IMG/VR virus record: IMGVR_UViG_3300033571_029303
Coordinates: 1 to 35,012 of that record
DNA: 35,012 nucleotides
Source: a virus
Reading direction: 5' to 3' (one strand)
Part shown: positions 1,212-27,528 of the stretch, in pieces
Layout of the letters: each line of letters begins with the position of its first letter
How positions within the stretch are numbered: position 1 is the first letter of the stretch
Program-made: the position numbers and the translations under genes
The notes under the pieces: generated by a model
What the model was told of the DNA's origin: nothing
Seen by the model: the letters and a program-made list of their open reading frames with translations, nothing else
Databases searched by the model: none

Positions 1212-1212
1212 T

Positions 1213-2708: not shown

Positions 2709-3400
2709 AACTTTTGGTATGTGGACATCTTAGAAATTTTTCAAATAATTATTATATTTTTGTAGAAAAATATTTTTCCAAATTAAATGCTGATAGTAAA
2801 CATCTTGTTACTTATAAAAATCTCGGTTGGTGGAGTGCAAAAAATTCTGTTAATGACGGAGACGTAATTGATGCAAATAAAATTATTAATTTTAATTTTT
2901 TTGATACTATTAATATTTTACAAAAAGAAATAGTGCAAAATATAGCGAAAGAGTATATCAAGCCTGTATCGATTGTGCGTCCTTATTTAAGAACAGAAAA
3001 TATGTCTAGTCAGTTTGCAATGAGGTACCTTTCTTGCAAAATTTTAAATTCTTTTGTTGATTCAAACGAAACAGTAGTTTTAACTCGCCCCGACATTTTA
3101 CCTTCTCCTAATATGGTAAATACTATAGTTGACATGATCAAAGATGTAGATAACGATAAATCTTTAGTGTGTTATGTTGGCGGTACTTCTGTTGAGCAAG
3201 GAGATCCTTTCTTTGTTGGTACTGTTTCTAATTTAAAACATATAATGTCATCATCAGCTGTTAATAATAATGAGTATATGGATGCACATGCGTTTTTAGA
3301 TGGAGCAATAATAGGAACCGATATCAAATTGAAAAGATATCCAGAACTTGGATGGGTATTATGTAATTCGCCAAATATGACAACTTATAGAGAAATTTAA
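2705..3400 (+). CDS. glycan-cluster protein of unknown function
   Basis: A 231-residue protein opening MKLLVCGHLRNF, a pattern that parallels the CLSGQPR opening of the gene at 1213. A central VVLTRPDILPSPNM (about residues 122-135) resembles the R-x-D segment of that protein, so the two may be distant paralogues of a GT-A-like fold. No membrane segment or signal peptide is seen. It overlaps the GT10 gene by 4 bases and is followed 4 bases later by the next gene. Position argues for glycan assembly; the reaction is unknown. Confidence 0.55.
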   Translation: MKLLVCGHLRNFSNNYYIFVEKYFSKLNADSKHLVTYKNLGWWSAKNSVNDGDVIDANKIINFNFFDTINILQKEIVQNIAKEYIKPVSIVRPYLRTENMSSQFAMRYLSCKILNSFVDSNETVVLTRPDILPSPNMVNTIVDMIKDVDNDKSLVCYVGGTSVEQGDPFFVGTVSNLKHIMSSSAVNNNEYMDAHAFLDGAIIGTDIKLKRYPELGWVLCNSPNMTTYREI

Positions 3401-3404
3401 TAAA

Positions 3405-4076
3405 ATGAATGTATTATTTTTTCAAACATCGATAATAAATGTTTCTAAAGATCCATTAAATTATAATCCTATCAGGTCCATGTACGATCCCGAGACACGC
3501 CTGCAACAAACAATTAATGGTGTAAACAGCGTTAGACTAAAATATCCTTCGGCTAAAATTTTCGTATGCGAAGCGAGTAAGCTTGACGATTACCAAGAAA
3601 AAAAATTAAAAGAATGTTCGGACAATCTTATTTTACTGCACGATGTGAATGAAGTTAAAGATACAAGAAATCATTCAAATAAAAGCTTAGCCGAAGCAAC
3701 TCAAGTTAAGCACATACTTAGTAATCCGGAAATACAAAATTATGATTTTGTATTTAAAATGTCGGGAAGATACTGGCTTTCAGATAGCTTCAATCCATCA
3801 TATATTGAGAATAAAAACAAAGCAAAAGTTATAGTAAGAAAAAGATTCTCAAATCCATATCGTCACTGGTTCAGTACTTCTTTGTATTGTGTAGGTAAAT
3901 ATGCTATTCCTATGATGATTAATCAGCTTGATAAAGCCATAGAGACACTAAAATACAACAATACAGATATTGAAAGCACTTTGTTTCGAGGTATCGAGAA
4001 TACATATTTGATAGAAGTAGATTCTATAGGATGCAGTGGAAGATTGGCTGTAAACGGCGAAATTGTTGATCATTAA
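3405..4076 (+). CDS. glycan-cluster protein, possible glycosyltransferase
   Basis: A 223-residue protein. A segment DFVFKMSGRYWLSDSFN (about residues 115-131) and a later ENTYLIEVDSIG resemble uncharacterised LPS/capsule locus proteins in which K-x-x-G-R-Y-W stands near the presumed sugar-nucleotide site. It starts 4 bases after the preceding stop, with no convincing Shine-Dalgarno, so translation is probably re-initiated. It is as A+T rich as its neighbours. Function is inferred only from context. Confidence 0.5.
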   Translation: MNVLFFQTSIINVSKDPLNYNPIRSMYDPETRLQQTINGVNSVRLKYPSAKIFVCEASKLDDYQEKKLKECSDNLILLHDVNEVKDTRNHSNKSLAEATQVKHILSNPEIQNYDFVFKMSGRYWLSDSFNPSYIENKNKAKVIVRKRFSNPYRHWFSTSLYCVGKYAIPMMINQLDKAIETLKYNNTDIESTLFRGIENTYLIEVDSIGCSGRLAVNGEIVDH

Positions 4077-4089
4077 ATAAGAAGTTAAT

Positions 4090-4692
4090 ATGAGCGAAAG
4101 AATACAAATATTAAATAGTCTTCTAGAAAAGCGCACAAATCCATCCTATCTTGAAATAGGATATGGAGATGGTACCTGCTTTGAAAGTATAACATGTGTG
4201 GATAAAACATGTGTAGACCCAAGTCCCTTTTGTGATAAAAATTTTGGAAAATCTGGAACTTGCATAAAAAAATATAGCGATTCTTTTTTTGAATCTAATC
4301 AAAAAATGTTTGATGTGATCTTTATAGATGGAGATCATTCTTATGATCAAGTGTGTAAAGATTTTTCAAATTGTTTAAAGTTCCTTAAAAAAGGTGGTTG
4401 TATAGTTTTACATGACTGTAATCCTCCAGATAAAAACCACACAAATCAAAATTTATGTGGAGATGGTGGATATAGAATGTTCACCGAGTTTTATCAAAAA
4501 AATACAACTTTTACATGGATGACTTCTTTTGAAGATTATGGTGTTTGTGTTGTTACAACGGATAATTCTAGACAGGCGGAGACTTTGAATAAAAACGGCG
4601 AAGATTTATATGATATATTTTCTAATTCTAGAATTAATATTTTGAATTTAAAACCAGCTTCAGAAATTATTAAAATAATAAATTTAATTTGA
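4090..4692 (+). CDS. class I SAM-dependent methyltransferase (Methyltransf_24 type)
   Basis: A 200-residue protein with a Rossmann methyltransferase core. Motif I is EIGYGDG (22-28). The segment DVIFIDGDHSYDQV (75-88), followed by LKKGGCIVLHDCNP (about 99-112), is characteristic of small-molecule/sugar methyltransferases of this family, where the D and H residues bind metal. In this cluster it probably O-methylates a sugar or glycan end, a cap that can stop chain growth. A GAAG about 6 bases before the ATG can serve as ribosome site. The C-terminal 60 residues are less typical. Confidence 0.8.
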   Translation: MSERIQILNSLLEKRTNPSYLEIGYGDGTCFESITCVDKTCVDPSPFCDKNFGKSGTCIKKYSDSFFESNQKMFDVIFIDGDHSYDQVCKDFSNCLKFLKKGGCIVLHDCNPPDKNHTNQNLCGDGGYRMFTEFYQKNTTFTWMTSFEDYGVCVVTTDNSRQAETLNKNGEDLYDIFSNSRINILNLKPASEIIKIINLI

Positions 4693-4706
4693 AACAAGGT
4701 ATTTTT

Positions 4707-5612
4707 ATGAGCACTATTCGAGCTTTTATGTTTCATGATGTTAGAGATGCATCTAATACCAAATATGCTTCTCGATATTCTTTAAAATCTTATTTAACAC
4801 CAGAAATTTTTAAAAGACAAATTGAATTTATATCTAGCAGATATAAAGTAATCGATAGTTCTGAAATATTATCTATTAATTTGGATGGGGATGAGAATTA
4901 TGCTGTTTTAACTTTTGATGATGGCTTGAAAGACCATCTAAATGTAGCAAAATATCTGAAAGATAACTCATTACCAGCTACTTTTTTTGTGCCAGTGGAG
5001 CCAGTATTTCATAATACCGTTATACACGCCCATAAAATACAATTTATCTTATCTGTAACAAATGAAAAAGAACTTGTAAAAGAAATTTTAAATAATTTTA
5101 GTGACGAAAGAGAAGTTATTTGGAATCAATACAGCCAGACGATATGGAAAGATAATTGGTGGACATTAGAAATGATATTCATCACCAATTTTTTAAGAAA
5201 GCATAACACAGAAAAATTTAATTGTTATGATTATTGTGATGTTCTTTTTAACAAGTATGTGGTATCCAAAGATATAGAATATTTTAAAAATTTTTATTTG
5301 AATGAGCAAGATCTAAGTTATATTTACGATAATGGATTTACCATCGGAGGGCATGGTTATTCTTCTAACAATCTTTTGTTGGAAAAAGAATGGATAAAAG
5401 ACATAAAGAAGTGCGAACCAATAAAATCATACACAGATTTTTTATGTTTTTCGTATCCTCACGGTGGTTATTCGGATGAAATTAAAAAAGAATTGAAGCA
5501 AAATGGATATGAGTTCGCTTATACAGTCAATCCTTTTACAATAACGGAATTAGACAAATTTGATAGTATGGAATTTCCAAGATATGATGCCCCACAGAGA
5601 ATATTAGTATGA
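4707..5612 (+). CDS. polysaccharide deacetylase-like protein (NodB/CE4 fold)
   Basis: A 301-residue protein from ATG 4707. An upstream TTG at 4689 is also open, but the ATG has AAGG at a good distance and gives the usual length. CE4 motif 1 is TFDDG (69-73), followed by LPATFFVP (89-96). A second motif reads IGGHGYSSNNL where active enzymes normally have H-x-x-x-H, so the second zinc histidine seems replaced. FSYPHGGYS (near residue 250) matches the later RxPyG-like motif. It would remove N-acetyl groups, possibly making the free amine that the next enzyme formylates. The altered motif leaves activity uncertain. Confidence 0.75.
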   Translation: MSTIRAFMFHDVRDASNTKYASRYSLKSYLTPEIFKRQIEFISSRYKVIDSSEILSINLDGDENYAVLTFDDGLKDHLNVAKYLKDNSLPATFFVPVEPVFHNTVIHAHKIQFILSVTNEKELVKEILNNFSDEREVIWNQYSQTIWKDNWWTLEMIFITNFLRKHNTEKFNCYDYCDVLFNKYVVSKDIEYFKNFYLNEQDLSYIYDNGFTIGGHGYSSNNLLLEKEWIKDIKKCEPIKSYTDFLCFSYPHGGYSDEIKKELKQNGYEFAYTVNPFTITELDKFDSMEFPRYDAPQRILV

Positions 5613-6259
5613 AAATATTATATTATGGTTACAGAGAATGGGCTTATAAAATATTTAATAATTTAGATAAAAAAAATATTTATTTAATTTCGAATGATGA
5701 CTACAGTATTATAGATTTTATAAAACCTAATTTAATATTTTTTATAGGATGGAGCAACATAATTCCATCTGAAATTGTTAAAAAATATAAGTGTGTATGT
5801 TTACATCCTTCTCCTTTGCCGAAATATCGTGGTGGAAGCCCAATACAAAATCAGATATTAAATAATGAAACCGAGAGTGCTGTAAGTTTATTTTTGATGG
5901 ATGACGGTATAGACACAGGAGATATATTGTTTCAAAAGAAAATTAGCTTAGACGGAACTTTGAATTGTATATTCGATAGAATAGTGGAAACAGGAACCGA
6001 AGGAATAAAGTTTATACTGTCTAATGTTACAAATTTGGATTCCATATCGAAAAAACAATGTGAGAATGACGCTACTTTTTTTAAAAGAAGAAAACCACAA
6101 CAAAGCGAAATAACAATAGAAGAAATACAAAATAGTGATGCATTATTTCTTCATAACAAGATTAGATCATTAGCGAATCCGTATCCGAATGCCTATATAA
6201 AATGTAAAGGTGGTCAGAAACTCTATATTTTGGACTCTCGGATAGATTATGAAAAATGA
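5609..6259 (+). CDS. sugar/methionyl-tRNA formyltransferase-family protein
   Basis: A 216-residue protein with the Formyl_trans_N fold. The diagnostic strip is CLHPSPLPKYRGGSPIQ (64-80), and the catalytic aspartate lies in MDDGIDTGDIL (D102). Sugar N-formyltransferases and Fmt use 10-formyl-tetrahydrofolate and an Asn-x-His...Asp triad. Here the position before LH is Cys64 rather than Asn, while His66 and Asp102 are kept. It lacks the C-terminal tRNA-recognition domain of Fmt, so a sugar amine is the likelier substrate. It overlaps the deacetylase by 4 bases and the SDR gene by 11. Confidence 0.8.
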   Translation: MKILYYGYREWAYKIFNNLDKKNIYLISNDDYSIIDFIKPNLIFFIGWSNIIPSEIVKKYKCVCLHPSPLPKYRGGSPIQNQILNNETESAVSLFLMDDGIDTGDILFQKKISLDGTLNCIFDRIVETGTEGIKFILSNVTNLDSISKKQCENDATFFKRRKPQQSEITIEEIQNSDALFLHNKIRSLANPYPNAYIKCKGGQKLYILDSRIDYEK

Positions 6260-7178
6260 AAAAATTTTTATTACAGGTGGAGCTGGTTACTTAGGTCAGA
6301 ATCTCTGTAAATATTTGTCTCAAGATAACGAAATAATAGTTTACTCCAGAGACGAATCAAAACATTATTACATGCAAAAGCAGTTTCCTAATGTAAGATT
6401 TATAATCGGAGATATACGTAATAAAGATTATTTAATAAGAAAATCTAAAGGATGTACAATTGGAATATTTGCGGCATCTTTAAAACAGATAGATGCCTGT
6501 ACCAATAATTACGAAGAAGCTTCTAAAATCATAATAGATGGTGCTATAAATTCAAGACTTGCAGCCGAAGAAAATGGATTTAAGTCGGCAAGTTTTATAT
6601 CGTCAGACAAAAGTCGAGCAGCAACCACAATATATGGTGCCATGAAATATGTTGCAGGAGAGTCTTTTATAGTTGGCGATTCTAACTCTAATTTAACCAC
6701 TTTAATTTATGGAAATGTTGCAAATTCAACCGGGTCAATTATTCCATTAATATGGAATTGTATCAAAAACAATAGATGTTTGACTCTTTATGAGCCTTCA
6801 ATGACTCGTTTTTGGATAGATATCAAAGATGCAGTGGATTTAATAGTCAAGGCTCAAAAATATAAAGGTTGTAATATAATACCAAAAATAAAATCTTTTT
6901 GTATAGAAGATTTGTGTAAAATTTATAGCGAAAAATTTGGATTGAAATATACAGTCGGCACTCCTCGTGTCGGAGAAAAAATTCATGAAATAATGGCTTC
7001 TAATGAGGAAATTCGAAGATTGCAATATGTTTCTTCTGATAATTTATACGTTCTGTATCCAGACAGACAAATCAATAATTTAAGTTTTCCAAATAACGAA
7101 TATTCTTCAAAAGATTTTTGTATGGATATAAACGAATTGTTCCATGTACTAGAAGATAAGGATTTTTATAAATTATGA
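6249..7178 (+). CDS. NDP-sugar dehydratase/epimerase, extended SDR (CapD/PseB/WbjB-like)
   Basis: A 309-residue protein with an N-terminal NAD(P) site TGGAGYLG (9-16), acidic GDIRNKD (54-60), and ISSDKSRAATTIYGAMK (117-133). The last stretch carries the Tyr129-x-x-x-Lys133 pair and the SxDKA-like strip typical of UDP-GlcNAc 4,6-dehydratases (PseB, CapE/WbjB, FlaA1). It probably converts a UDP-HexNAc to a 4-keto-6-deoxy intermediate. The following gene is an RmlD/CapF-like reductase, so the pair fits early steps toward an N-acetyl-fucosamine or related 6-deoxy amino sugar. The precise product is not decidable. Confidence 0.82.
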   Translation: MKNEKIFITGGAGYLGQNLCKYLSQDNEIIVYSRDESKHYYMQKQFPNVRFIIGDIRNKDYLIRKSKGCTIGIFAASLKQIDACTNNYEEASKIIIDGAINSRLAAEENGFKSASFISSDKSRAATTIYGAMKYVAGESFIVGDSNSNLTTLIYGNVANSTGSIIPLIWNCIKNNRCLTLYEPSMTRFWIDIKDAVDLIVKAQKYKGCNIIPKIKSFCIEDLCKIYSEKFGLKYTVGTPRVGEKIHEIMASNEEIRRLQYVSSDNLYVLYPDRQINNLSFPNNEYSSKDFCMDINELFHVLEDKDFYKL

Positions 7179-7978
7179 AATGTGCAATATTCGGAAATAA
7201 TGGAATGCTCGGTTCGTATGCTCGATCTTATTTACAAGACTTTTATGAAATATCGTCTTTTGGTAGGAAAGATATAGATATATTTTCTTGTAGTAAAAAA
7301 GATTTTTTTGATTTTGCCGACAAAAAATTAAAAAATATCGATGTGATAATAAACTGTGCAGGTGTCATAAAGCAAAGAAATGTTTCCGATGAAGAAATGA
7401 TAATTGTAAATTCAATATTTCCGCATTGGTTGGCTGAAATTAAAAAGAATACTAATTGTAATGTAATACATTTTACTACTGACTGTGTTTATAGTGGTAT
7501 TAAAGGTAATTACTCGGAAGACGACAAACACGATTGCGCTGATGTTTATGGAAAATCCAAATCAATAGGTGAAAATCAAAACTTGACTATTATTAGAACT
7601 TCTATTATTGGAGAAGAGCAAAGAAATAAATTAAGTTTATTAGAATGGGTAAAATCTAATCAAAATAAAACAGTAAATGGTTTTACAAATCATTTCTGGA
7701 ACGGAGTGACGTGTTTAGAATTGATGAAGTATGTACATAGTATTATAAACTACAATCTTTATTGGAATGGTGTTCGCAACGTTTTCAGTCCAAATGTTGT
7801 ATCTAAATATGATTTAGTTAATATGATATCTGAAGTTTATGAATTAAACGTTAGTGTTAATAAAAACAGTCATATTGATTTTTGTGACAGGTCTCTTTCT
7901 TCAATTCACAGTAAAAAACCCATAGCAAAATCATTAATCAATCAATTAATTGAAATTAAAAATTTTAAATTAAGTTAA
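7175..7978 (+). CDS. sugar-nucleotide reductase, RmlD-like SDR
   Basis: A 267-residue protein starting MKCAIFGNNGMLGS, an RmlD-type GxxGxxG dinucleotide site. It has VIINCAG (57-63), HFTTDCVYSG (99-108) and the catalytic YGKSK (125-129). RmlD/CapF-type enzymes reduce 4-keto groups of 6-deoxy NDP-sugars using NAD(P)H. The gene overlaps the dehydratase gene by 4 bases, which supports a two-step route. A CapF-like C-terminal cupin is absent here, though a cupin is fused to the next protein. The order is typical of O-antigen and capsule clusters. Confidence 0.82.
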   Translation: MKCAIFGNNGMLGSYARSYLQDFYEISSFGRKDIDIFSCSKKDFFDFADKKLKNIDVIINCAGVIKQRNVSDEEMIIVNSIFPHWLAEIKKNTNCNVIHFTTDCVYSGIKGNYSEDDKHDCADVYGKSKSIGENQNLTIIRTSIIGEEQRNKLSLLEWVKSNQNKTVNGFTNHFWNGVTCLELMKYVHSIINYNLYWNGVRNVFSPNVVSKYDLVNMISEVYELNVSVNKNSHIDFCDRSLSSIHSKKPIAKSLINQLIEIKNFKLS

Positions 7979-7988
7979 TAGGTTTATT

Positions 7989-8945
7989 ATGAAAGATATA
8001 AAATTAGTAATGTTTGATCTCGATGGTGTTTTGGTTGATGCTTGTGAACTTCATTACGAAGCTCTAAACAAAGCTTTAACTGCAAACGGCAAATCGTCGA
8101 TAAGCCGAGAAGACCACGAAAGCAAATATAACGGTCTTCCTACCAAAGTAAAGCTGAATCTTCTTGGATATGAAGATGCTTTGATAAAAAAGATCGACAG
8201 CGACAAGCAAAATTATACTTTAGAACTGATTGAAAAATGTTGCACCAAAAGACAAGAAAAAATTGACTTGATTGATTATTTAAAAAAAAGAGGCATAGTT
8301 GTCGGTTGTGTGACCAATTCAATAAGAAAAACCACGCAAAAAATGCTAATTCAGACCGGCATTTACGATAAAATAGATTTTTGCATAACAAACGAAGATG
8401 TTGATTTTGCTAAACCGGATCCAGAAGGTTATGTAAAGGGTATATCTTTTTACAACAATCTTATCGACTCGATTGCCAATCAAGTAATAATAGTTGAAGA
8501 CAGTCCTAAAGGATTGCAAGCAGCTCGAGCCACTGGTGCTTGTGTTATTCAAGTAAAGGATCCAAATGACGTTCATGTTGGATTGTTCAACTCGATTGTT
8601 GCAAAAGATGTTGAAAAGTCTCAAGTAAGTATGATGCGTGGTGGGTGGTTTGTTGGCGCATTTGAACCTACATTAGAAAACACCAAAGATTTTGAAGTTG
8701 GTTACAGAAGTTACAAAAAAGGCGAAGATCATGATATGCATTATCATGTTGTAGCCAAAGAAATAAATTGTGTCGCTAGAGGATGTGTAGAAATTGAAGG
8801 AGAATTGTATAAAGAGGGCGACATTTTCATTGTTCATCCTTTCAAAGCAATTAAACCGATATTTCATGAAGACAGTTCTATAGTTTGCGTTAAGATACCA
8901 TCATGTCCCAACGATAAATATGTCTTAAAGGACATTACACTATGA
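7989..8945 (+). CDS. HAD-superfamily phosphatase fused to a C-terminal cupin-like domain
   Basis: A 318-residue protein. The HAD part (about 1-210) has motif I MFDLDGVLVD (8-17), a motif II-like VTNS, KPDPEGY and the metal-binding VEDSPKG. It fits the beta-phosphoglucomutase/sugar-phosphatase subgroup. The C-terminal 100 residues carry a histidine-bearing beta-strand pattern (HDMHYHVVAKE ... GCVEIEGELYKEGDIFIVHPF) typical of a small cupin. The likely role is dephosphorylation or isomerisation of a sugar phosphate; the cupin may be an epimerase-like or sensory domain. It overlaps the nucleotidyltransferase by 4 bases. The combination is unusual, but both halves are clear. Confidence 0.8.
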   Translation: MKDIKLVMFDLDGVLVDACELHYEALNKALTANGKSSISREDHESKYNGLPTKVKLNLLGYEDALIKKIDSDKQNYTLELIEKCCTKRQEKIDLIDYLKKRGIVVGCVTNSIRKTTQKMLIQTGIYDKIDFCITNEDVDFAKPDPEGYVKGISFYNNLIDSIANQVIIVEDSPKGLQAARATGACVIQVKDPNDVHVGLFNSIVAKDVEKSQVSMMRGGWFVGAFEPTLENTKDFEVGYRSYKKGEDHDMHYHVVAKEINCVARGCVEIEGELYKEGDIFIVHPFKAIKPIFHEDSSIVCVKIPSCPNDKYVLKDITL

Positions 8946-9655
8946 AGATATTGATACCGATGGCTGGAGAAGGATCCAGGTTTGCCAAAGAGGGATATAC
9001 GTTCCCCAAACCATTAATCGATGTTAATGGTAAACCTATGATACAAAATGTTGTGGAAAATATCAGCTTTGATGCTGATTATATTTTTCTGGTAAGAAAA
9101 AGTCATTTAGACAAATATCCTGGTCTTGGTTCTACCCTAGAAAGAATCACCAAAGGAAAAACAACAATAGTGACTGTTGATAGTTTGACCGAAGGCGCAG
9201 CGTGTACAGCTTTGCTTGCTAAAGATTACATAAACAACGACGATGATCTGCTTATCGCCAATTCTGATCAAATAATCGAATACAGCAAAGAAAATTTTGT
9301 AATTATCAAAGACAAGATAAGCGTTGACGGTATAGTGTTTGCGTTTCGTTCAACTCATCCTAAATGGTCGTTTGTAAAGTTAAACAAAGAAAATTATATA
9401 ACTGAAGTTGCTGAAAAAAAACCAATTTCGGATGTTGCTACTTGTGGAATATATTGGTACAAGCGTGGTAAAGACTTTGTATCGGCTGCCGAGCAAATGA
9501 TTGCCAAAAACATACGGGTGAACAATGAATTTTATGTAGCCCCCGTCTACAACGAAATGATATCCGATGGTAAATTCATACTACCATTTTTTGTTGATAA
9601 AATGCATGGTATCGGAACACCGGAAGACTTGACAAATTATTTAAAAATAATATGA
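8942..9655 (+). CDS. sugar-phosphate nucleotidyltransferase
   Basis: A 237-residue protein with the NTP-transferase signature IPMAGEGSRFAKEGYTFPKPL (about 5-25), i.e. G-x-G-S/T-R-x ... K-P. NSDQII near residue 105 supplies the catalytic/metal aspartate, and the C-terminal part carries a second acidic site near MHGIGTPEDL. It would activate a sugar 1-phosphate (or glycerol-like phosphate) to its NDP form for the transferases upstream. It overlaps the HAD gene and the GDPD-like gene by 4 bases each. HAD, nucleotidyltransferase and GDPD-like genes in a row suggest supply of an unusual activated building block. Confidence 0.85.
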   Translation: MKILIPMAGEGSRFAKEGYTFPKPLIDVNGKPMIQNVVENISFDADYIFLVRKSHLDKYPGLGSTLERITKGKTTIVTVDSLTEGAACTALLAKDYINNDDDLLIANSDQIIEYSKENFVIIKDKISVDGIVFAFRSTHPKWSFVKLNKENYITEVAEKKPISDVATCGIYWYKRGKDFVSAAEQMIAKNIRVNNEFYVAPVYNEMISDGKFILPFFVDKMHGIGTPEDLTNYLKII

Positions 9656-12777: not shown

Positions 12778-13725
12778 ATGTTACAGCGATTGGTTGAAAA
12801 ACTCGAAACTTTTGGTGTGGTGCGTGTTGACGGAAAACGCATAAAGGTTTGCATACCTTCAAAATGTCGCAACGACCGCGTGCAGGTTTTGCAACAAGTA
12901 AGCGACAATTTTCAAGATTTTTCTGCTGTGTTGATGAACGATATGCCCAGCTACAGCAGCATTGGGTATGTGCAAATACAAGATTTTCGAATAAGCGTCA
13001 AATCGCTACCGCAACAAAGCAGCATGTCGCCGGGTGTACCCAACGAGCATGTTCTAGCACAAAAAATTAATAAATATATAAAAGAATCGGGAACGATAAA
13101 TTTAATATTTTTGAGCGATAAAAATAGAATTTGCTATGAAAATGTTATGAATTGTCGTTTAACCGAAAATCGTAAATCAAGAAAAGGGCGCAACAAAGCC
13201 GATATGATCGTCGAAACACAACAAAACAACTATGCAGTTTCGATCAAACAGGACGATGCCGAGCGTTGGGAGTCGGCAGACACGTCGCACGGTACAGTAG
13301 CCCTTCAGCAGCTTCAAAAAGCTTTGGACGAACAAAAAACCCGCTTGCTTCCGGTTCTCGATAAAAACGGAGCACCGATGGTTCGCAAAGACGGAAGAAC
13401 CGTGATGCGGTTGGAAAACGAGCTTTTTTGGTGCATGGAAGAAAACCAAGCCAAAAAGACGATTTTTGGCGATGATGTTTGCAACGGTGGAGCGGTGGTT
13501 TTCAACACGTTCAACGATTCTCATTTTTCGTACAACAGCACCGATTCTAGTTTGACGGTTGCATGCGACCGAGTGTACACAACAGACGGCTCGATCGATG
13601 CACAAGATCATCCGTACTGGATAATCAGAAACGACGTAACCAGAAACTGTCGAAAGCTTGGAATACCCGGACTTCGCATCGAATCGGTATTCAAATCACG
13701 TATAAAATACGGAGTCGAAGTTTAA
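12778..13725 (+). CDS. putative PD-(D/E)XK-like nuclease-fold protein, first gene of the structural block
   Basis: A 315-residue protein from ATG 12778; an ATG at 12754 inside the hairpin's 5' arm would add 8 residues. A central segment GRNKADMIVET...YAVSIKQD has the D...(V/I)-x-(V/I)-K layout of PD-(D/E)XK restriction-like nucleases, preceded by basic RKSRKGRNK. The rest shows no known motif. A short AT-rich patch (about 13060-13150) interrupts the otherwise G+C-richer gene. Its stop TAA shares a base with the next ATG, which encodes the ATP-grasp fusion. Nuclease activity is an inference from one motif; it could equally be a virion protein. Confidence 0.5.
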   Translation: MLQRLVEKLETFGVVRVDGKRIKVCIPSKCRNDRVQVLQQVSDNFQDFSAVLMNDMPSYSSIGYVQIQDFRISVKSLPQQSSMSPGVPNEHVLAQKINKYIKESGTINLIFLSDKNRICYENVMNCRLTENRKSRKGRNKADMIVETQQNNYAVSIKQDDAERWESADTSHGTVALQQLQKALDEQKTRLLPVLDKNGAPMVRKDGRTVMRLENELFWCMEENQAKKTIFGDDVCNGGAVVFNTFNDSHFSYNSTDSSLTVACDRVYTTDGSIDAQDHPYWIIRNDVTRNCRKLGIPGLRIESVFKSRIKYGVEV

Positions 13726-16055
13726 TGCCAAACAACAATCACGTTACTGTTATTGTTTTGACATCTTCCGGAAAAGACGGTAGCGACACCGTAAACAAAA
13801 TACAACAGTCTTGCAAAAAGTTTGGCAAAAAGTTTTACATGGTTTCCACTCAGTATGCGTACATTGATGATCGTGCGTCAACTTCTGAAAAAATAGTGAT
13901 ACACAATCACGACGGTAGCGGCAAAAGCATCACACTCGATCCGCGTGATGTGGTTTGTTTTGCGCGTGGAGGCGTAACCAACACTCAAATCGGAATGGCG
14001 ATTCTTACGATTTTCGAGAACACCGGGATGTTTGTGATCAACGAACGTCGCCCGATGGAACTTTGTGCCAACAAGCTTTACAGTGCCATACAACTCGACA
14101 GTTACGATATACCAACACCAAAAACGGCGTTTGTTGCCAATTTGAGTTCGCTCGACAACGCACTCGAACAAATCGGCAATCAATTTCCGGTGATTGTAAA
14201 AACACTCACGGGTGCCGAAGGAGTTGGTGTTTCGATAGTTGACAGCTACGAAAGCTTGAAATCGGTTCTGCAAACTCTTTGGAAATACGATGCGGAACTT
14301 TTGATTCAAGAATACTTGGAAATCAAAAACGATGTTCGTGTGTTGGTTTTGGATGGCAAAGTTGTTGCAGCAGCGATGCGCGGCAAAGCACCCAGAGACT
14401 TTCGCACCAACCTTGCGCAAGGTGCCGAAGGTGGTCCGTATAAAATCAGCGACCAAGAGCGAGAAATAGCCGAGCGTGCGGCAGAGGTTTTTGGAACGTA
14501 TTATGTGGGTGTGGATATGATTACCAGCAAAGGAAAACCATATGTGATCGAACTCAACGCTTCACCCGGCAGCGGAAACGTGTATCGCAGCTATTTTCCC
14601 GACAGCGAAGGCAAAAACATCACGGGTCAAAAATTGATCGACAGCGTTGTCAAGCATGCAATAAACCGAGAAAATTGGAATTTCAATCACCGTGAAGTTG
14701 GTTTGATCGAACCGATCGACATCGATTCTATTGGAAAATACAAAGCCAAACTGGATACCGGCAACGAAAGTTACAATGTGTTGGGTGCAGAAAACATCGA
14801 AGAATACAACGGAACTGTTGCGTTTACGGTGCAAGGTAAAAAATATGAAAAACCCGTTGTGTCGCATGTGAGAATACGAACCAACAACATAAATGTGGAT
14901 CGTCGCCCGGTGGTGGAATTTGACGTAGAATTCAGAAATCGTAAATTCAAAAACATACGATTCAGTTTGGTGCCCAGAAGATTCAACAAATATCCTGTTT
15001 TGATTGGCAACAAATTTATGAATTTGGCCAAGATATCGGTAAACGTCAATACGATTCAAACGTTACCCGAAAGCAACAAAAACAATCAATATATTGAAAA
15101 AATAAATACATTAGGAAGTTTTGTGCAAATCGACGAAATGCGCGATATTCTTGCAGAAAAACTTCAAACGTGCAAAAAAGAAGATGAAGTAGTTTTGATC
15201 GAAGAGGCTTTGGGTCATATCAATGTTGCAAAATACAATTTAAAAAACCAGCAACAACAAGCTTACGATAGGAACACAATCATGTATGCCGACAAAAAGT
15301 TTTTAAAATTCTTAGAAAACTTTAACAATGAAAATTCTGAAAAACAAAATTTAAACGAAGAGGTTGTGTCCGAAGCCACACGCGCCAGCAGCATTTCGCA
15401 AGCGAGAAAAGCACTCGCCAAAATATCCAAAAAGCGCGAAGCGTTGCGTAAAGGCAAAAAGCAACGCAAAAGCCGTTCGGTTGGTGTAAAAATCGTAAAA
15501 GGCAAGCCCAAAGAAAAAGACTATCAACGCCTCGATCGAGCAATTCAACGCAAGCGTGCCAAGTCGGATCGTGAAAAGGGTATCGTAAGAACGAAAAAGC
15601 GTGAAAAGATGGGTCCTGCGCACGTTGGTGCGATCGAAGGAGCAAGCATTCCAGCAAGTCGCGAATATTCGCAATCGCGACGTTCGCAGCTCGAACGCTT
15701 GTATTCCAGAAAGAAATACAAAGAAAAGGCTCCAACCGAATACAACCCAGAAATGGCATCGATTCGCTTTTGGAACTATCGCACCCCCACAAACCCAAGA
15801 CGCAGCGATGCAGGCAATCCAATGCAAAGCGGTGCGCGTGCGAGTGTGGTTGACGGTGGCATCAAGCAGCGTTTTGGACGCTACTACGGCAACAAAAAGG
15901 GCAAAACCAAGAGCCGCACCGGTATGACCGGCGAAGAAATTCGTTCGGTTGTTCGTGAAAAGATTCGTCGTGGCGAATGGCCATCTCCGGGTGGTATGGC
16001 TGGTTTGCGCAAAGGCTGGGAAAAGACTTGGATGAAGAAAAAGAAAAAGGACTGA
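13725..16055 (+). CDS. RimK-type ATP-grasp ligase / retropepsin-like (RimB-type) peptidase / basic tail fusion
   Basis: A 776-residue protein. Residues 1-300 form a RimK-like ATP-grasp ligase: PVIVKTLTGAEGVGVS (about 155-170), LIQEYLEIKNDVRVLVLDGK, and the metal site VIELNASPGSGN (274-285). Residues about 325-440 match the RimK-associated ATP-dependent zinc protease/retropepsin-like family: IDIDSIGKYKAKLDTGNES with Asp344-Thr-Gly, then VDRRPVVEF and FNKYPVLIGNKFM. Residues 530-776 are very Lys/Arg rich. RimK adds glutamates to protein C-termini and RimB-type proteins trim them, so writer and eraser may be joined here. The site LNEEVVSEA before the basic tail resembles a prohead-protease site. 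Confidence 0.85.
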   Translation: MPNNNHVTVIVLTSSGKDGSDTVNKIQQSCKKFGKKFYMVSTQYAYIDDRASTSEKIVIHNHDGSGKSITLDPRDVVCFARGGVTNTQIGMAILTIFENTGMFVINERRPMELCANKLYSAIQLDSYDIPTPKTAFVANLSSLDNALEQIGNQFPVIVKTLTGAEGVGVSIVDSYESLKSVLQTLWKYDAELLIQEYLEIKNDVRVLVLDGKVVAAAMRGKAPRDFRTNLAQGAEGGPYKISDQEREIAERAAEVFGTYYVGVDMITSKGKPYVIELNASPGSGNVYRSYFPDSEGKNITGQKLIDSVVKHAINRENWNFNHREVGLIEPIDIDSIGKYKAKLDTGNESYNVLGAENIEEYNGTVAFTVQGKKYEKPVVSHVRIRTNNINVDRRPVVEFDVEFRNRKFKNIRFSLVPRRFNKYPVLIGNKFMNLAKISVNVNTIQTLPESNKNNQYIEKINTLGSFVQIDEMRDILAEKLQTCKKEDEVVLIEEALGHINVAKYNLKNQQQQAYDRNTIMYADKKFLKFLENFNNENSEKQNLNEEVVSEATRASSISQARKALAKISKKREALRKGKKQRKSRSVGVKIVKGKPKEKDYQRLDRAIQRKRAKSDREKGIVRTKKREKMGPAHVGAIEGASIPASREYSQSRRSQLERLYSRKKYKEKAPTEYNPEMASIRFWNYRTPTNPRRSDAGNPMQSGARASVVDGGIKQRFGRYYGNKKGKTKSRTGMTGEEIRSVVREKIRRGEWPSPGGMAGLRKGWEKTWMKKKKKD

Positions 16056-16058: not shown

Positions 16059-16736
16059 ATGAAGCATAAATACTTAGCCGAGATGAGTGTAAAATCCGGA
16101 GCCGTTAGTCAATTGCCTTCGGGTGTTTTGCGTGCTTTGGCTCCGTTGCTTGCGAAATTGTCCGGAAAAAGCAAAAACAAGTCGCAGCAAAAGACCGATG
16201 AAAAAATGATCAATTATATGGATCAAGGATGCGGTGGCGGTGGTTCGTATTCCAACCAACCAGCAGCCAGCACAACTCCTTCGGATCGTGAATGGGGTAC
16301 ATCATCGTCGGTGAACGCTTATTCTACCATGACTCCCGGACAATCGCAGTCGATTCGCGAAAGTGCCGAAGAAGAACGCAATCGTCGCGATTACAAGCGT
16401 TGGAAGCAATTGGTAAACATGGGTGCCAAGGAAATACAAGCCTTTTTGGACAGTCAAGACGGTAAAAAAGCAGGTCTCAGTCGTAAAGAAGCTTCCACAG
16501 CAGGTGCTGGTGGCGGCAGAATCACAAGCGGTCGCGACAGCGCACGAGCAATCATCCGAATGAAGAGCAAACCGTTCAGCGAATGGGATGCAAGCGACAT
16601 TCGATGGATGCGCAAGCAAATAAACTTTATCAGTCGCATGCGAGGAAATCCCGGAAAGTTGCGCGACGAACAAGGCAGACCCACCCGCAAGTTGCTGGCT
16701 CTCAAAGTATGGGGTCACAATCCATCAAAAGGTTAA
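16059..16736 (+). CDS. conserved phage-type protein of unknown function
   Basis: A 225-residue protein starting MKHKYLAEM, a short sequence that resembles the head-targeting N-termini of the genes downstream. Residues 1-100 are Ser/Gly/Gln rich and likely disordered (GCGGGGSYS). From about 105 to 225 it has a compact conserved-looking domain: IQAFLDSQDGKKAGLS, SGRDSARAIIRMK, DIRWMRKQINFISRM, GRPTRKLLALKVWGHNP. I have the impression this domain recurs in uncharacterised phage and bacterial proteins, but know no function. A ribosome site AAGGA lies in the end of the upstream gene. Confidence 0.6.
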   Translation: MKHKYLAEMSVKSGAVSQLPSGVLRALAPLLAKLSGKSKNKSQQKTDEKMINYMDQGCGGGGSYSNQPAASTTPSDREWGTSSSVNAYSTMTPGQSQSIRESAEEERNRRDYKRWKQLVNMGAKEIQAFLDSQDGKKAGLSRKEASTAGAGGGRITSGRDSARAIIRMKSKPFSEWDASDIRWMRKQINFISRMRGNPGKLRDEQGRPTRKLLALKVWGHNPSKG

Positions 16737-18505: not shown

Positions 18506-19246
18506 ATGAAACGTTACAAAGATCTTCGCGAAAAATTAAATGAAGATTCGGAAAGTTACTATGATGCCAAGTATCGTGTTGGTCCACTCGGAGGCAACAA
18601 CGAAGTAGACCAAGCGGATGCGGCAATTTTCGATCTTGCTCGTCCCGACAATGTTCGTCGCATCAACACTTATCTTGGTGCGGCTGGCGCAAAACCTGTT
18701 TTGGATCCAAATAGCGTTCTTCGTCAAATCCAGAAAAAGTTGTCGATGATTGGATTGCAGTTTAGCATTCCAACCAGCGACTTGGGTGGTAGATCTCGTT
18801 ACGGAACCAACGATGTTCCGGATGGTGGCGAGGGCACAACCACAAACGAATACCCACTTTCTTATTTGGGTGGTCGTTTTGGTGTTCTCGACAACACCGG
18901 AAAAATTGGTTACGACGACAACATCTCGCATCGATTGGGTCATGGTCTCAAACTTCGTGTTGTGTACCAAGACACTCCGAATGGTATGACTACGGTTGTG
19001 GCCAAAGTTGTAACTTCGGATTCCAACAACTCGGGAGAATTGAACGTTCCGAGCATGATGAAACAAGCAATCAACACCATGCGTGATGCGATGTCTAAAA
19101 ACGAAAACTACACCACACAGATGACTGGTATGACAACTGTGCTTCCAAAGCAAGGTGCCAGCGACGATACAGTCGCCGATGTGCAAACGACCGACAAGGT
19201 CGCCAGCATAATCGGTCGTCTGAGAAACATCACGCCGGGTCAATAA
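18506..19246 (+). CDS. putative virion protein with T4-like targeting N-terminus
   Basis: A 246-residue protein from ATG 18506, with GAGG 7 bases ahead overlapping the previous stop; an in-frame TTG at 18494 is less likely. The N-terminus MKRYKDLREKLNEDSES resembles the T4 capsid-targeting sequence, ending in a possible prohead-protease site LNE. The body contains PDNVRRINTYLG, a GGRSRYGTND loop and SMMKQAINTMRDAM. No enzyme motif is recognised. It lies directly after the structural protein and is likely a head or tail component. Confidence 0.6.
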   Translation: MKRYKDLREKLNEDSESYYDAKYRVGPLGGNNEVDQADAAIFDLARPDNVRRINTYLGAAGAKPVLDPNSVLRQIQKKLSMIGLQFSIPTSDLGGRSRYGTNDVPDGGEGTTTNEYPLSYLGGRFGVLDNTGKIGYDDNISHRLGHGLKLRVVYQDTPNGMTTVVAKVVTSDSNNSGELNVPSMMKQAINTMRDAMSKNENYTTQMTGMTTVLPKQGASDDTVADVQTTDKVASIIGRLRNITPGQ

Positions 19247-22246: not shown

Positions 22247-23190
22247 AAACCTTTTTTATGGCTTTGTTTGTGCTTTCGGCACTTTGCTTGAATGTAGGAT
22301 GTTCTTGGCGCGGAGAAGTTGAAACTCCAACGATAAAACCAATAAACGACAACACTGCTCAAAGCATCAGCTCGTCGGCAATTATTCAGTCCGACTCGAT
22401 CGCAAAAATCGGTGAAGCCAATGCTTCCAGCAAACAGTCGGTCGATTCGATTCGCGCAACCACCGACGAATCCAACAAAACCGCTGCGAGCATCGTGGAA
22501 AAAACCGAAGATGCTACGATCATCACCAGCGTAGATGCAATCATCAATCACAATCAAAAGATTCGTGAAGATGCAAATGCAATCGAAGCCAACAGCGAAA
22601 AGATACAATCGAATCTTGAATTGGCTCAAAAACAAAACGTTCAAATACAAAAAGACGCTCAAGCTGTTCAAAATTTACAACAAACTATAGCAAATCTTGA
22701 AAACGAAAAACAAAAATTGCAAAACGATGCAATTAAAAATCTGTACACCACACTGAGCTTTTTCTTTGGTTTGGGATTTCTCACGATCATTTCGGGACTG
22801 GTGTTGGCTTTCTTGGTGAACAAAAAGCTAGGTATGAGCATTGCGGGTCTTGGTGTGCTTGCGTTGGCTCTTGCTGCCGGTGCGATTTATTATCTCAAGG
22901 CTATTGCGGTTGTTGCGATTGTTATTATCATCGCAAGCATTGTGGTGTGTTTGGCGATCGGCGTTTGGCATGTGGTGCGTGAAAATCGTGAGAAGCGAAC
23001 ACTCGAACAAGCCAACATCGAAAATGTCACGCTTGTTCAGAAGATCAAAGAGCGTTTGGATCCCAACGCCAAAGTTGAAATCTTTGGCGAATACAAGCCG
23101 GGTCTTGCCAGCACAATACAAAGCGACAACACTCGTGATATTGTAAAGAAAGTTCGCCAGAAAATCGACAGCAACGGAGAAACTGTATGA
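22243..23190 (+). CDS. putative lipoprotein with coiled coil and three C-terminal membrane segments
   Basis: A 315-residue protein. The first 20 residues form a signal peptide, MKTFFMALFVLSALCLNVGC, with Cys20 as candidate lipidation site (the -3 residue Asn is not ideal). Residues about 50-165 are polar and helical with heptad features (IANLENEKQKLQND). Three hydrophobic spans follow near 168-192, 196-218 and 220-245, then a soluble charged tail. It must act at the host envelope, for example in lysis, exclusion or DNA entry. It is coupled by ATGA to head-type genes on both sides, an odd place for it. No family recognised. Confidence 0.6.
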   Translation: MKTFFMALFVLSALCLNVGCSWRGEVETPTIKPINDNTAQSISSSAIIQSDSIAKIGEANASSKQSVDSIRATTDESNKTAASIVEKTEDATIITSVDAIINHNQKIREDANAIEANSEKIQSNLELAQKQNVQIQKDAQAVQNLQQTIANLENEKQKLQNDAIKNLYTTLSFFFGLGFLTIISGLVLAFLVNKKLGMSIAGLGVLALALAAGAIYYLKAIAVVAIVIIIASIVVCLAIGVWHVVRENREKRTLEQANIENVTLVQKIKERLDPNAKVEIFGEYKPGLASTIQSDNTRDIVKKVRQKIDSNGETV

Positions 23191-23756
23191 AAAACTTCAA
23201 AGATTTCTTGAACGAAAGCACACAAGCCGAACGTGATCGTGCGATTGCCGCAAGATCCAAGAAAAAAGCAAGCGAAATTGAAGCGGAGATTGACGCTGGT
23301 GGTCAAACACCCGAACGACGTAGGGAATTACGCAAGAGTTTGACTGGTCAAAGAAGAACTGCTTTTGAAAAGGATACAGGAATTCCTTTTGACGTGTTTG
23401 CGAGTTTGTTGAAAAAGGAATCGTACAGTGCCGAAAACGATTACGAAGGCGAAATGGCTAGCAGCGAATTGCGCAACATCATCAGCAACGCTCAAGATGT
23501 TGAATCGATGCTCAAGCCAACCACCAAACTCGAAGCTTGGGTTCAAAGCAAAATCACCAAAGCCAACGACTACATAAACTCGGTGCGCGACTATCTCAAG
23601 AACACTCCGGGTGCGGTTGAAGAAGCACTCGATCCGGTTGGCCAAGAAGATGCCGACATCAACAACGATGGTGTGGTTGATGGCACCGACCGTTATCTCC
23701 GCAAACGTCGTCGTGCTATTGCCAAGGCTATGGCCAAACGAAAAGGTCGCAAATGA
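23187..23756 (+). CDS. head-associated protein with targeting N-terminus and dockerin-like calcium loop
   Basis: A 189-residue protein starting MKNFKDFLNEST, a clear capsid-targeting-type sequence with an LNE-S cleavage-like site. A second domain, EGEMASSELRNIISNA ... LEAWVQSKITKANDYI (about 88-128), is familiar from uncharacterised structural proteins of marine T4-like phages. Near the C-terminus DADINNDGVVDGTDRYL (about 154-170) has the D-x-N-x-D-G-x-x-D spacing of a dockerin/EF-hand calcium loop. The end is strongly basic (KRRRAIAKAMAKRKGRK). Likely a core or internal protein; overlaps both neighbours by 4 bases. Confidence 0.7.
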   Translation: MKNFKDFLNESTQAERDRAIAARSKKKASEIEAEIDAGGQTPERRRELRKSLTGQRRTAFEKDTGIPFDVFASLLKKESYSAENDYEGEMASSELRNIISNAQDVESMLKPTTKLEAWVQSKITKANDYINSVRDYLKNTPGAVEEALDPVGQEDADINNDGVVDGTDRYLRKRRRAIAKAMAKRKGRK

Positions 23757-24040
23757 AAAGCTTCAAGCAATTCATAACCGAACAACAAAAACCCGTTGCT
23801 CCCACTCCAAGATACAACACTCCGATCGTAAGAGATTTCACTAAAGGTCCAGTCAATATCGAACACGATGGAATCTTTAGTGCGTTTGCCAGTGGTCGTC
23901 GAGCAGGATTGAGTCCAACTTTCAATCCCGATCGCGTTCCAACAATTCAAAGAATAGTTCAATCTTTTAAAGTTGGTCAAAGACGCGGAACTTTCGGTCG
24001 CAGACGCAGACCCACCGATTCTCCCGAAACAACGGATTGA
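23753..24040 (+). CDS. small basic internal-protein candidate (95 aa)
   Basis: A 95-residue protein. MKSFKQFITEQQ is the best match here to the T4 targeting sequence (T4 internal proteins begin MKTYQEFIAE). The rest includes FSAFASGRRAGLSPTF, echoing FKSGRRSGLTSS in the protein at 20755, and a basic end GQRRGTFGRRRRP. Small, basic and targeted fits a DNA-associated protein packaged in the head and perhaps injected. It is the last gene before the strand switch, coupled to the preceding gene by 4 bases. Confidence 0.65.
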   Translation: MKSFKQFITEQQKPVAPTPRYNTPIVRDFTKGPVNIEHDGIFSAFASGRRAGLSPTFNPDRVPTIQRIVQSFKVGQRRGTFGRRRRPTDSPETTD

Positions 24041-24167: not shown

Positions 24168-24458
24168 TTACGTGGTTAGCGTCAAGCCCTTCTTGGGAAT
24201 AATAACCTTTCCAAAAGCTGCTTGGTATTCGTTTTCGAGCTTGGGATCCACCGGAACCACAAACATAACTTTGCTGGGTTCGAGTGTGATGCCTTCCGAG
24301 AGATTTGCATGCGGCATGTAACCAATAAACCCAAGTTGATTGCGTTCAACCATTCCGAGTGTCACTGGGTCTTTGATCACAATCTTTCCATCGAGCGTAT
24401 CTACAACGTCACCAATAAGCTCTTCACCGTTGATCATCTTTACAATCTTGATACTCAT
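24168..24458 (-). CDS. Sm-like small phage protein
   Basis: A 96-residue protein from ATG 24458, which shares its A with the upstream stop (TGATG). IKIVKMINGEELIGDVVDTLDGKI (about 3-26) followed by DPVTLGMV and a second strip ITLEPSKVMFVVPV (about 55-68) has the two-part beta pattern of an LSm/Hfq-like fold; similar small proteins occur in marine T4-like phages. It could bind RNA, but this is inference from the pattern. It is the last gene of the leftward block, ending about 35 bases before the shared terminator. Confidence 0.6.
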   Translation of the reverse strand: MSIKIVKMINGEELIGDVVDTLDGKIVIKDPVTLGMVERNQLGFIGYMPHANLSEGITLEPSKVMFVVPVDPKLENEYQAAFGKVIIPKKGLTLTT

Positions 24459-24748
24459 CAAATAGTCTCCTTATTTTCAATATCGTCGCTTGTATCTATT
24501 GCTTCGCTGCAATATTCAATAACTTTTTTGTACATTTCTGGCATAATTTGATCGAATCCGGTGGTGTTTCGATTGCGATTGCCAATAACGGGGTTCATCA
24601 TTTCATTAAAGATTTCTTCGCTGTCGCGCATGTCGCCTCGTACAATCGCAGCAATTGCGATAAACGACAGACATCCACCAATAAAATCTTTTTGAAATCT
24701 TCCAACACGATCGCTGGGTTTCATCGAGTCTGAGTCGTCACAATCCAT
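24458..24748 (-). CDS. small hypothetical protein (96 aa)
   Basis: A 96-residue acidic protein with ribosome site AAAGGA. It opens MDCDDSDSMKPSDR, has a hydrophobic helix GGCLSFIAIAAIVRG (about 24-38) that is short for a membrane span, then FNEMMNPVIGN and an acidic end. No recognised family. Translational coupling by TGATG to the Sm-like gene suggests related expression. Confidence 0.5.
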   Translation of the reverse strand: MDCDDSDSMKPSDRVGRFQKDFIGGCLSFIAIAAIVRGDMRDSEEIFNEMMNPVIGNRNRNTTGFDQIMPEMYKKVIEYCSEAIDTSDDIENKETI

Positions 24749-24758
24749 TTTTTATCCT

Positions 24759-25364
24759 TTAAAACAATTTCAATGCTGTTTTCAAAATTTGTTTTGGAAG
24801 CTTTTCGGCATAAGACTTTTTTATCTTTGACGGCATCATCTGACCCAGCAAATCTCCATAAAATTTATTGGACGGTTCCCAGGATCTTTTCAACTCGACA
24901 CAATGATAAAAAACTATTTGACGATTCGCTTCTCGACGATACTTTTCCAAATTTATTGGCAGATCATATTTTTTTATTAAATTTGCAGCCAACTTGTCGC
25001 AACATGCTTCGTTTCTGCGTATCACATTGAATGCATTTTTAACTTTTTTGCAGTATGCTACTTTTCTTTGAACGTAGTTTTCAACCAACTTTACAGGATC
25101 ATAGTCGTACTTATAGTATGCAGCAAACGTGCTTTCGTCTTGTTTCCATTGCAAAAAATGTGCATATTCATGCACAAATGTTTCGAGCCAGCGATAATTT
25201 TTGTATATTCCAAGTTCCATCGAGCAGTCGTCAAAGTATCCGTCGATCTCAAATTTAGGATCTATGGTTCGGCGATATAGTTTTATTTTTATGTGATGAT
25301 GTTTCAAATCTTCGATAGCAATTGCAAGGAATTTTTTGACATGCGGATTGCGTGTGCAAAACAT
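24759..25364 (-). CDS. putative zinc metallopeptidase (HExxH, gluzincin-like)
   Basis: A 201-residue protein from ATG 25364 with AAGGG ahead; the frame is open further upstream into a tandem repeat, so start choice matters. ETFVHEYAHFLQW (about residues 59-71) is a perfect HExxH zinc motif in a helix. About 60 residues downstream NEACCDKLA provides the E-x-x-x-D third ligand of gluzincins. No signal peptide is visible, so it would act in the host cytoplasm or on virion assembly. The Cys content is unusual. Substrate unknown. Confidence 0.65.
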   Translation of the reverse strand: MFCTRNPHVKKFLAIAIEDLKHHHIKIKLYRRTIDPKFEIDGYFDDCSMELGIYKNYRWLETFVHEYAHFLQWKQDESTFAAYYKYDYDPVKLVENYVQRKVAYCKKVKNAFNVIRRNEACCDKLAANLIKKYDLPINLEKYRREANRQIVFYHCVELKRSWEPSNKFYGDLLGQMMPSKIKKSYAEKLPKQILKTALKLF

Positions 25365-25376
25365 AAGAATCCCTTG

Positions 25377-25435
25377 TGTTGAAACGCACAAATCGCACAA
25401 TCATATTGTTGAAACGCACAAATCGCACAATCATA
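25377..25435. repeat. tandem direct repeat, two 29-bp copies
   Basis: Two identical 29-bp units occupy 25377-25405 and 25407-25435, one base apart (period 30). Each begins TGTTGAAACGCAC and ends CACAATCATA. They lie between the HNH gene and the metallopeptidase gene, in the leader of the latter. Being a multiple of three, the period keeps reading frames open. Confidence 0.95.
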
Positions 25436-25440
25436 GTGAA

Positions 25441-25824: not shown

Positions 25825-25829
25825 ACCAT

Positions 25830-25837
25830 TATTTATG
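25830..25837 (-). promoter_or_regulatory. late-promoter-like CATAAATA ahead of HNH gene
   Basis: CATAAATA on the minus strand, one base from the T4 late element, ends 6 bases before ATG 25824. Transcription from it would give a nearly leaderless mRNA. It lies just before the stop of the upstream gene. Confidence 0.45.
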
Positions 25838-25839
25838 TT

Positions 25840-26542: not shown

Positions 26543-26548
26543 GATGAA

Positions 26549-27409: not shown

Positions 27410-27427
27410 AAGTGCATTCCTCCCGAG

Positions 27428-27435: not shown

Positions 27436-27439
27436 TAAA

Positions 27440-27523
<84 letters not shown>

Positions 27524-27528
27524 TTTGA

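What the first reader, a model, noticed from the sequence alone, without database searches (positions are those of the whole stretch)
13725..16055. Writer-eraser fusion: RimK-type ATP-grasp ligase joined to a RimB-like retropepsin peptidase inside a phage head operon
Seen: ATP-grasp motifs (VIELNASPG), then a retropepsin LDTG active site in the IGKYKAKLDTG context, then about 245 Lys/Arg-rich residues. Known: bacterial RimK adds glutamates to ribosomal protein S6, and RimB-type peptidases remove them. Inferred: one phage protein may add and trim amino-acid tails on a virion protein or on host S6, and its basic tail may bind DNA or place it in the head. This is the best candidate for a new system here.
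Basis: partly seen in the sequence, partly recalled or inferred. Interest (0 to 1): 0.85.

Follow-up and report, generated by a model that had tools for sequence, protein, structure and literature searches.

The report
Phage RimK-type ligase–protease fusion enzyme
This marine-phage protein joins an enzyme that adds glutamates to proteins with one that removes them; hundreds of phages carry relatives, most beginning with the short tag that phage T4 uses to load proteins into its head for injection, so the family probably modifies host proteins from the first moment of infection.

Summary
Window 13725-16055 is one intact 776-aa frame: a RimK-type ATP-grasp ligase (about 1-315), a RimB/RloA-type retropepsin (about 320-445), a helical linker, and a basic tail (541-776, net +43). 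Residues invariant in relatives are kept. The fusion is not unique: bacterial RimBK hybrids (opposite domain order) are published, and IMG/VR holds hundreds of phage relatives with this order. New here: 148 of 158 5'-complete phage relatives start with a motif ([FY]xx[FY][IL]xE) matching the T4 internal-protein capsid-targeting sequence at its four functionally defined residues. The strict pattern hits 3/254 T4 ORFs (two are internal proteins), 1/188 Mosig ORFs (the fusion) and 2/165 in another phage (the fusion and a nucleotidyltransferase). A homologue in Yersinia phage YerA41 was found in virions by mass spectrometry. Best reading: a head-packaged, injected protein-glutamylating/deglutamylating enzyme, comparable in delivery to T4 Alt. 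Caveats: the window's own copy lacks the N-terminal signal, the substrate is unproven, all activity is inferred. The 'head operon' setting is not confirmed by named head genes; most relatives sit between regA and DNA polymerase. New variant of a known kind.

The parts
13725..16055 (+). Whole gene, 776 aa: RimK-type ligase, retropepsin, helical linker, basic tail
   Evidence: Intact ORF; Pfam PF08443 and PF05618
13725..14669 (+). ATP-grasp RimK-type alpha-L-glutamate ligase domain (res about 1-315); invariant K117, K159, E196, D203, R205, R219, R227, N229, D264, E276, N278
   Evidence: TIGR00768 158.3 bits over cut-off 143.4; invariant columns (E196 invariant, nearly so); Foldseek RimK 7qys/5zk6
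14673..15062 (+). Retropepsin (RimB/RloA-like, PF05618) domain (res 317-446), active site D344-T-G-N347, second motif VLIGN
   Evidence: (2pma 1e-11; RloA 9g58/9g59)
15063..15344 (+). Helical linker (res about 447-540), containing KKFLKFLEN, a capsid-targeting-like stretch lacking the final Glu
   Evidence: AlphaFold helices 466-536; first part alignable with L174; motif is inference
15345..16052 (+). Lys/Arg-rich low-confidence tail (res 541-776, net +43) opening with an LxE prohead-protease-like site (LNE|E, res 543-545)
   Evidence: no relative found
16059..16736 (+). Downstream DUF3140-like gene (N-terminus MKHKYLAEM); in relative L174 this domain is fused to the ligase-protease protein
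   Evidence: Pfam DUF3140 4e-9; L174 single 899-aa ORF
23187..23756 (+). Small protein with strict capsid-targeting N-terminus MKNFKDFLNES
   Evidence: Pattern scan
23753..24040 (+). Small basic protein with strict capsid-targeting N-terminus MKSFKQFITEQ
   Evidence: Pattern scan

Best explanation
The gene belongs to a widespread family of T4-like phage enzymes in which a RimK-type glutamate ligase is fused to a RimB-type retropepsin. Shown by sequence: the fusion, the intact catalytic residues, and in nearly all relatives an N-terminal capsid-targeting signal of the T4 internal-protein type. Inferred: the signal takes the enzyme into the prohead, the prohead protease clips it after the Glu, and the enzyme is ejected into the host with the DNA. 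There the ligase adds Glu tails to a host protein (ribosomal protein S6 is the leading candidate) and the protease trims them, acting before phage genes are expressed, as T4 Alt does with ADP-ribose. In the window's copy the N-terminal signal is missing; an LxE site followed by a strongly basic tail may do the head targeting and DNA association instead.
For: CTS-like start in 148/158 5'-complete relatives, 32/39 clusters at 90% identity and 9/14 at 60%, against 10/717 other ORFs in the same loci, 1/188 in Mosig (the fusion itself), and 2/165 in G001. Positive control: in T4 the pattern finds 3/254 ORFs, two being internal proteins. The four matching positions are those shown by mutation to direct targeting and processing in IPIII (PMC9026906). 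Lineage covariation: in phages G002 and G003 both the fusion and other proteins use a variant with L or I at the first position. Head protease gp21 is present in the two relatives with long records, Mosig and G001, and Mosig gp23 carries FLSE|AAP near residue 52. YerA41 homologue detected in virions by LC-MS/MS. Cyanophage stand-alone RimK proteins lack the signal. Catalytic residues invariant. Best solved-structure matches are alpha-L-glutamate ligases, one solved with RpsF (S6).
Against: The window's own protein has no N-terminal signal, nor does YerA41. A 189-kb relative record (G002) gave no gp21 match. No enzymatic data; the bacterial RimBK hybrid tested in the literature cut Glu tails but did not glutamylate the S6 tested. 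Scores fall far short of the S6-ligase equivalog (99.8 of 331 bits), and the RimB equivalog (cut-off 200 bits) is not met either. Relatives are clustered, so counts are not independent. YerA41 virions also held many replication enzymes, so detection there may be carry-over.
Confidence: 0.58

Rival explanations
1. The enzyme is made during infection and works in the cytoplasm on host ribosomes; the N-terminal motif is not a packaging signal.
For: Most relatives lie in the replication operon between regA and gp43; YerA41 homologue is a middle-phase gene; window copy lacks the motif.
Against: Motif is highly specific to this protein in whole phage proteomes and covaries with lineage; in T4 the same pattern picks out mainly internal proteins.
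Confidence: 0.22
2. A head-assembly or virion-modifying enzyme: it tags or trims phage structural proteins before or during maturation.
For: In the L044/L050 group it lies between terminase large subunit and tail sheath; window neighbours include proteins with capsid-targeting N-termini; basic tail with an LxE site.
Against: Most relatives are not near head genes; no poly-Glu target known in virions; RimB homologues are specific for poly-Glu, known from S6.
Confidence: 0.12
3. A metabolic ligase (glutathione-, cofactor- or peptide-forming) or graspetide-type cyclase rather than a protein-tail modifier.
For: Annotated 'glutathione synthetase' in Mosig; ATP-grasp folds such as PsnB and LysX also match.
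Against: Scores best to RimK (TIGR00768 2.5e-46; glutathione synthase 1e-21 and far under cut-off); fused to a poly-Glu-type protease; a metabolic enzyme has no need of a capsid signal.
Confidence: 0.08

Closest known systems
RimBK hybrid of Desulfotalea psychrophila and other bacteria (PMC11957791)
   Same: RimK-type ATP-grasp and RimB-type retropepsin in one polypeptide; the RimB part cuts poly-Glu from S6
   Different: RimB is N-terminal there, C-terminal here; cellular, no capsid signal or basic tail described
RimA-RimB-RimK system of Pseudomonas
   Same: Ligase and retropepsin that write and erase Glu tails on ribosomal protein S6
   Different: Separate genes; the window protein misses the S6-ligase and RimB equivalog cut-offs
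RloA/RloC operon of Pseudomonas aeruginosa (PMC12239564)
   Same: RloA retropepsins are among the closest solved structures to the protease domain, encoded beside an ATP-grasp protein
   Different: RloA is secreted; the cytoplasmic ATP-grasp RloC is separate
T4 Alt and internal proteins IPI-III
   Same: Proteins carried in the head and injected; the IP capsid-targeting sequence matches the family's N-termini
   Different: Alt is an ADP-ribosyltransferase; IPs are not known as ligases or proteases
Phage stand-alone RimK (phrog_2599, cyanophages S-RIM8, S-RIM12)
   Same: RimK-type ATP-grasp domain
   Different: No retropepsin and no capsid-targeting start
R2K-clade ATP-grasp enzymes in phages (PMC4431377)
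   Same: Predicted protein-modifying ATP-grasp ligases in caudate phages
   Different: A divergent clade; here only a weak R2K_3 hit (5e-4) against 3e-39 for RimK

Membership tests
RimK family alpha-L-glutamate ligase (TIGR00768 / PF08443) | Profile score over the curated cut-off | tested here: met
   158.3 bits vs 143.4; PF08443 134.9 vs 21
RimK family alpha-L-glutamate ligase (TIGR00768 / PF08443) | ATP-binding lysines and Mg ligands D/E/N | tested here: met
   K117, K159, D264, E276, N278 invariant in 28 relatives; fold matches RimK 7qys; role assignment from general knowledge of ATP-grasp enzymes
RimK family alpha-L-glutamate ligase (TIGR00768 / PF08443) | Ligates Glu to protein C-termini | not testable with these tools
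   Needs an assay
S6--L-glutamate ligase RimK (NF007764) | Equivalog cut-off | tested here: not met
   99.8 bits vs 331
Zn_protease/RimB-RloA retropepsins (PF05618) | Gathering cut-off and DTG active site | tested here: met
   39.2 bits vs 27; DTGN invariant in 28, DTG-like in 146/147 3'-complete loci
Zn_protease/RimB-RloA retropepsins (PF05618) | Retropepsin fold | tested here: met
   Foldseek 2pma 2.5e-7, RloA 9g58 1.6e-6, HIV protease 2.8e-4
Zn_protease/RimB-RloA retropepsins (PF05618) | Dimeric active site | not tested
   Only a monomer was modelled
RimB equivalog (NF052261) | Equivalog cut-off | tested here: not met
   Not among the 25 best families listed for the window protein (all those are at or below 4.8e-6); 24.5 of 200 bits for relative L174
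RimBK hybrid | RimB domain N-terminal to RimK | tested here: not met
   Order is RimK then retropepsin
T4-type packaged internal protein (CTS) | N-terminal [FY]xx[FY][IL]xE signal | tested here: not met
   Absent from the window protein's N-terminus; met in 148/158 relatives
T4-type packaged internal protein (CTS) | Present in the virion, processed by gp21 | not testable with these tools
   Only homologue evidence: YerA41 virion LC-MS/MS

The most novel reading that the evidence does not exclude
Marine T4-like phages inject a prepackaged write-and-erase enzyme that resets glutamylation of host ribosomes (or another host protein) at time zero, together with a packaged nucleotidyltransferase partner that is sometimes fused to it; in the window's lineage the head-targeting function moved to a basic C-terminal tail.
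Probability: 0.25. Interest if true: 0.85.

Novelty: new variant of a known kind. Interest (0 to 1): 0.62.

Why it matters
If right, glutamylation of host proteins joins ADP-ribosylation (T4 Alt) as a modification delivered by the virion itself, in phages of abundant marine bacteria such as SAR11. It would give a role to hundreds of genes now called 'glutathione synthetase' or 'structural protein', put a retroviral-type protease to work inside tailed-phage infection, and make the question of what RimK/RimB do outside their few model bacteria directly testable. The capsid-targeting motif is also a simple way to list candidate injected proteins in uncultured T4-like phages.

Tried and rejected
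Frame error or chimaera: rejected, relatives keep the join and the ORF is unbroken. Metabolic glutathione synthesis: rejected on scores. Relatives of the basic tail: none in phages or IMG/VR, so its origin stays open; separate translation from an internal ATG at 15282 (SD-like 4/6) is possible but unsupported. Single-sequence IMG/VR search found nothing; profile searches found hundreds. Bacterial genomes: the phage-derived pattern found three weak ATP-grasp-only hits, which is not a fair test for bacterial fusions of the same order. A glutamine riboswitch reported in Melnitz lies at ssrA, not at this gene, so it was not used as evidence. Literature searches found no description of capsid-targeting on phage RimK proteins in the held library.

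Full report
What is there. The gene at 13725-16055 is one unbroken frame of 776 aa whose ATG overlaps the stop of the upstream gene. Residues 116-286 match RimK (PF08443, 3e-39) and 338-442 match the RimB/RloA retropepsin family PF05618 (8e-10), both over curated cut-offs. An AlphaFold model with 28 sequences in the alignment gives pLDDT mostly 85-95 for residues 10-440, further helices to about 617, and low confidence for most of the tail. Foldseek places the ligase nearest RimK, including RimK solved with RpsF, and the isolated protease domain (pLDDT 84) nearest Lpg0085, RloA and then HIV protease; a profile search of solved chains agrees on the first two. The tail (541-776) has 67 K/R in 236 residues and net charge +43.

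The family. A single-sequence search of IMG/VR found nothing, but small profiles built with Pelagibacter phage Mosig, Yersinia phage YerA41 and Methylophilales phage Melnitz found 425 relatives in one scan (more exist) and 133 in another. Almost all complete ones have the same two domains in the same order; 146 of 147 3'-complete loci keep a DTG-like active site, the exception being Melnitz, which has only the ligase. K117, K159, D203, R205, R219, R227, N229, D264, E276, N278 and D344-T-G-N are invariant in 28 diverse members; E196 is invariant in the 15-member alignment and nearly so in the larger one. The window protein therefore looks catalytically competent in both halves. The basic tail is private to it: no relative was found. 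Closest relatives are L006-L008 (42-46%) and L174 (46% over 469 aa). In these the protein also carries an N-terminal cytidylyltransferase-like domain, and in L174 a C-terminal DUF3140 domain that in the window is the next gene.

The unexpected feature. Listing N-termini showed that the relatives begin with short motifs such as MKAPKFKEFISEA, MINFNGYITEE or MQVQPFKNYLEEA. T4 internal proteins begin MKTYQEFIAEA (read from T4 DNA); residues 4 and 7 direct targeting into the head and 8 and 10 direct clipping (PMC9026906). The family matches all four positions with identical spacing. Of 158 relatives not cut at the 5' end, 148 have it; by clusters, 32 of 39 at 90% identity, 14 of 19 at 70%, 9 of 14 at 60%. 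Several of the members scored as lacking it have near versions: MSKSVRTFLNEE in L006-L008, MEKFADFFTEA in L024, MGIKQYLTEG in L040, MISLDDYLKEE in L041. Controls: 10 of 717 other ORFs in the same loci; 1 of 188 ORFs in Mosig, which is the fusion; 2 of 165 in phage G001, the fusion and a cytidylyltransferase-like protein; 3 of 254 in T4, two of which are internal proteins. In phages G002 and G003 the fusion and many unrelated proteins share a variant with L or I in the first position, which suggests that the motif follows each phage's own signal rather than shared descent alone. Stand-alone RimK proteins of cyanophages lack it. Mosig and G001 encode the gp21-type protease, and Mosig gp23 carries FLSE|AAP near residue 52 (reading it as the cleavage site is my inference). 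The YerA41 homologue (g112, 'ribosomal protein modification protein', which I equate with YerA41_066 from its place beside the ribonucleotide reductase genes) was identified in purified particles by LC-MS/MS and is a middle-phase gene (PMC7354516), although YerA41 itself has no such N-terminus.

Setting. In most relatives the gene lies in gp45-gp44-gp62-regA-[fusion]-gp43, the T4 replication operon; in the L044/L050 group it lies between terminase large subunit and tail sheath. In the window it follows a DnaB-type helicase, an HNH gene and an unknown gene, and is followed by a DUF3140 gene and unknown proteins, some with capsid-targeting N-termini. 'Head operon' is thus not confirmed by named genes, but a cluster of head-internal proteins downstream is plausible.

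How it most likely works. Step 1 (shown by sequence): two apparently competent domains in one chain. Step 2 (strongly suggested for the family, weaker for this copy): loading into the prohead by the N-terminal signal and clipping by the head protease. Step 3 (inferred): ejection with DNA. Step 4 (inferred from RimK/RimB biochemistry): addition and removal of Glu tails on a host protein, S6 being the leading candidate. For the window copy the N-terminal signal is missing; the LNE|E site at 543-545 and the following basic tail could replace it, or the copy may no longer be packaged. I put packaging of the family at about 0.7, of this copy at about 0.45, and S6 as main target at about 0.35.

Compared with what is known. 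[quoted passage not shown] RloA retropepsins sit beside an ATP-grasp gene (PMC12239564). So the fusion as such is not new; the phage family, its domain order, its capsid signal and its fusion to a nucleotidyltransferase are, as far as the held library shows, undescribed. It is a member of the RimK family by TIGR00768 but not of the S6-ligase or RimB equivalogs. That T4 Alt is a head-borne ADP-ribosyltransferase is established knowledge; its head processing is described in PMC9026906.

Limits. Counts of relatives are not independent; no dimer was modelled; no substrate was tested; ORF calling used ATG only in the background scans (the family scan also allowed GTG and TTG, which makes it somewhat more permissive), and contigs are fragments.

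Noticed in passing
L174:1307-3638: A DUF6267 gene appears broken at its VKWDG site by split-intein-like halves (CVHEET... and ...ENILIHN) with a free-standing ORF (1817-2524) between them, resembling the 'fractured gene' arrangement known from marine phages.
   Followed up: no
L177:7469-8422 (G001) and L006/L008/L174: A cytidylyltransferase-like protein with a capsid-targeting start is the only other strict hit in phage G001; the same domain is fused to the ligase-protease in L006-L008 and L174, suggesting a packaged partner.
   Followed up: partly
L184-L193 (G002), L188:12181-13587: Phage G002 has about ten proteins with a variant head signal (MRL.NY[IL].E); one is a weak Amidoligase_2 match, another possible packaged peptide-bond-forming enzyme.
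   Followed up: partly
window 1-9000: Glycan-type cassette (glycosyltransferases, epimerases, formyl- and methyltransferase) of GC 0.27-0.36 beside the rest at 0.43-0.48; looks imported.
   Followed up: no
window 24168-35012: Strand and AT-skew switch near 24.1 kb; minus-strand genes include a PAP2-like protein and one (32201-32665) matching the C-terminal end of phrog_3041 cytidyltransferase.
   Followed up: no
T4 18966-19130 (L200): A 54-aa T4 ORF starting MKTFKEFIKED matches the capsid-targeting pattern besides the two internal proteins.
   Followed up: no
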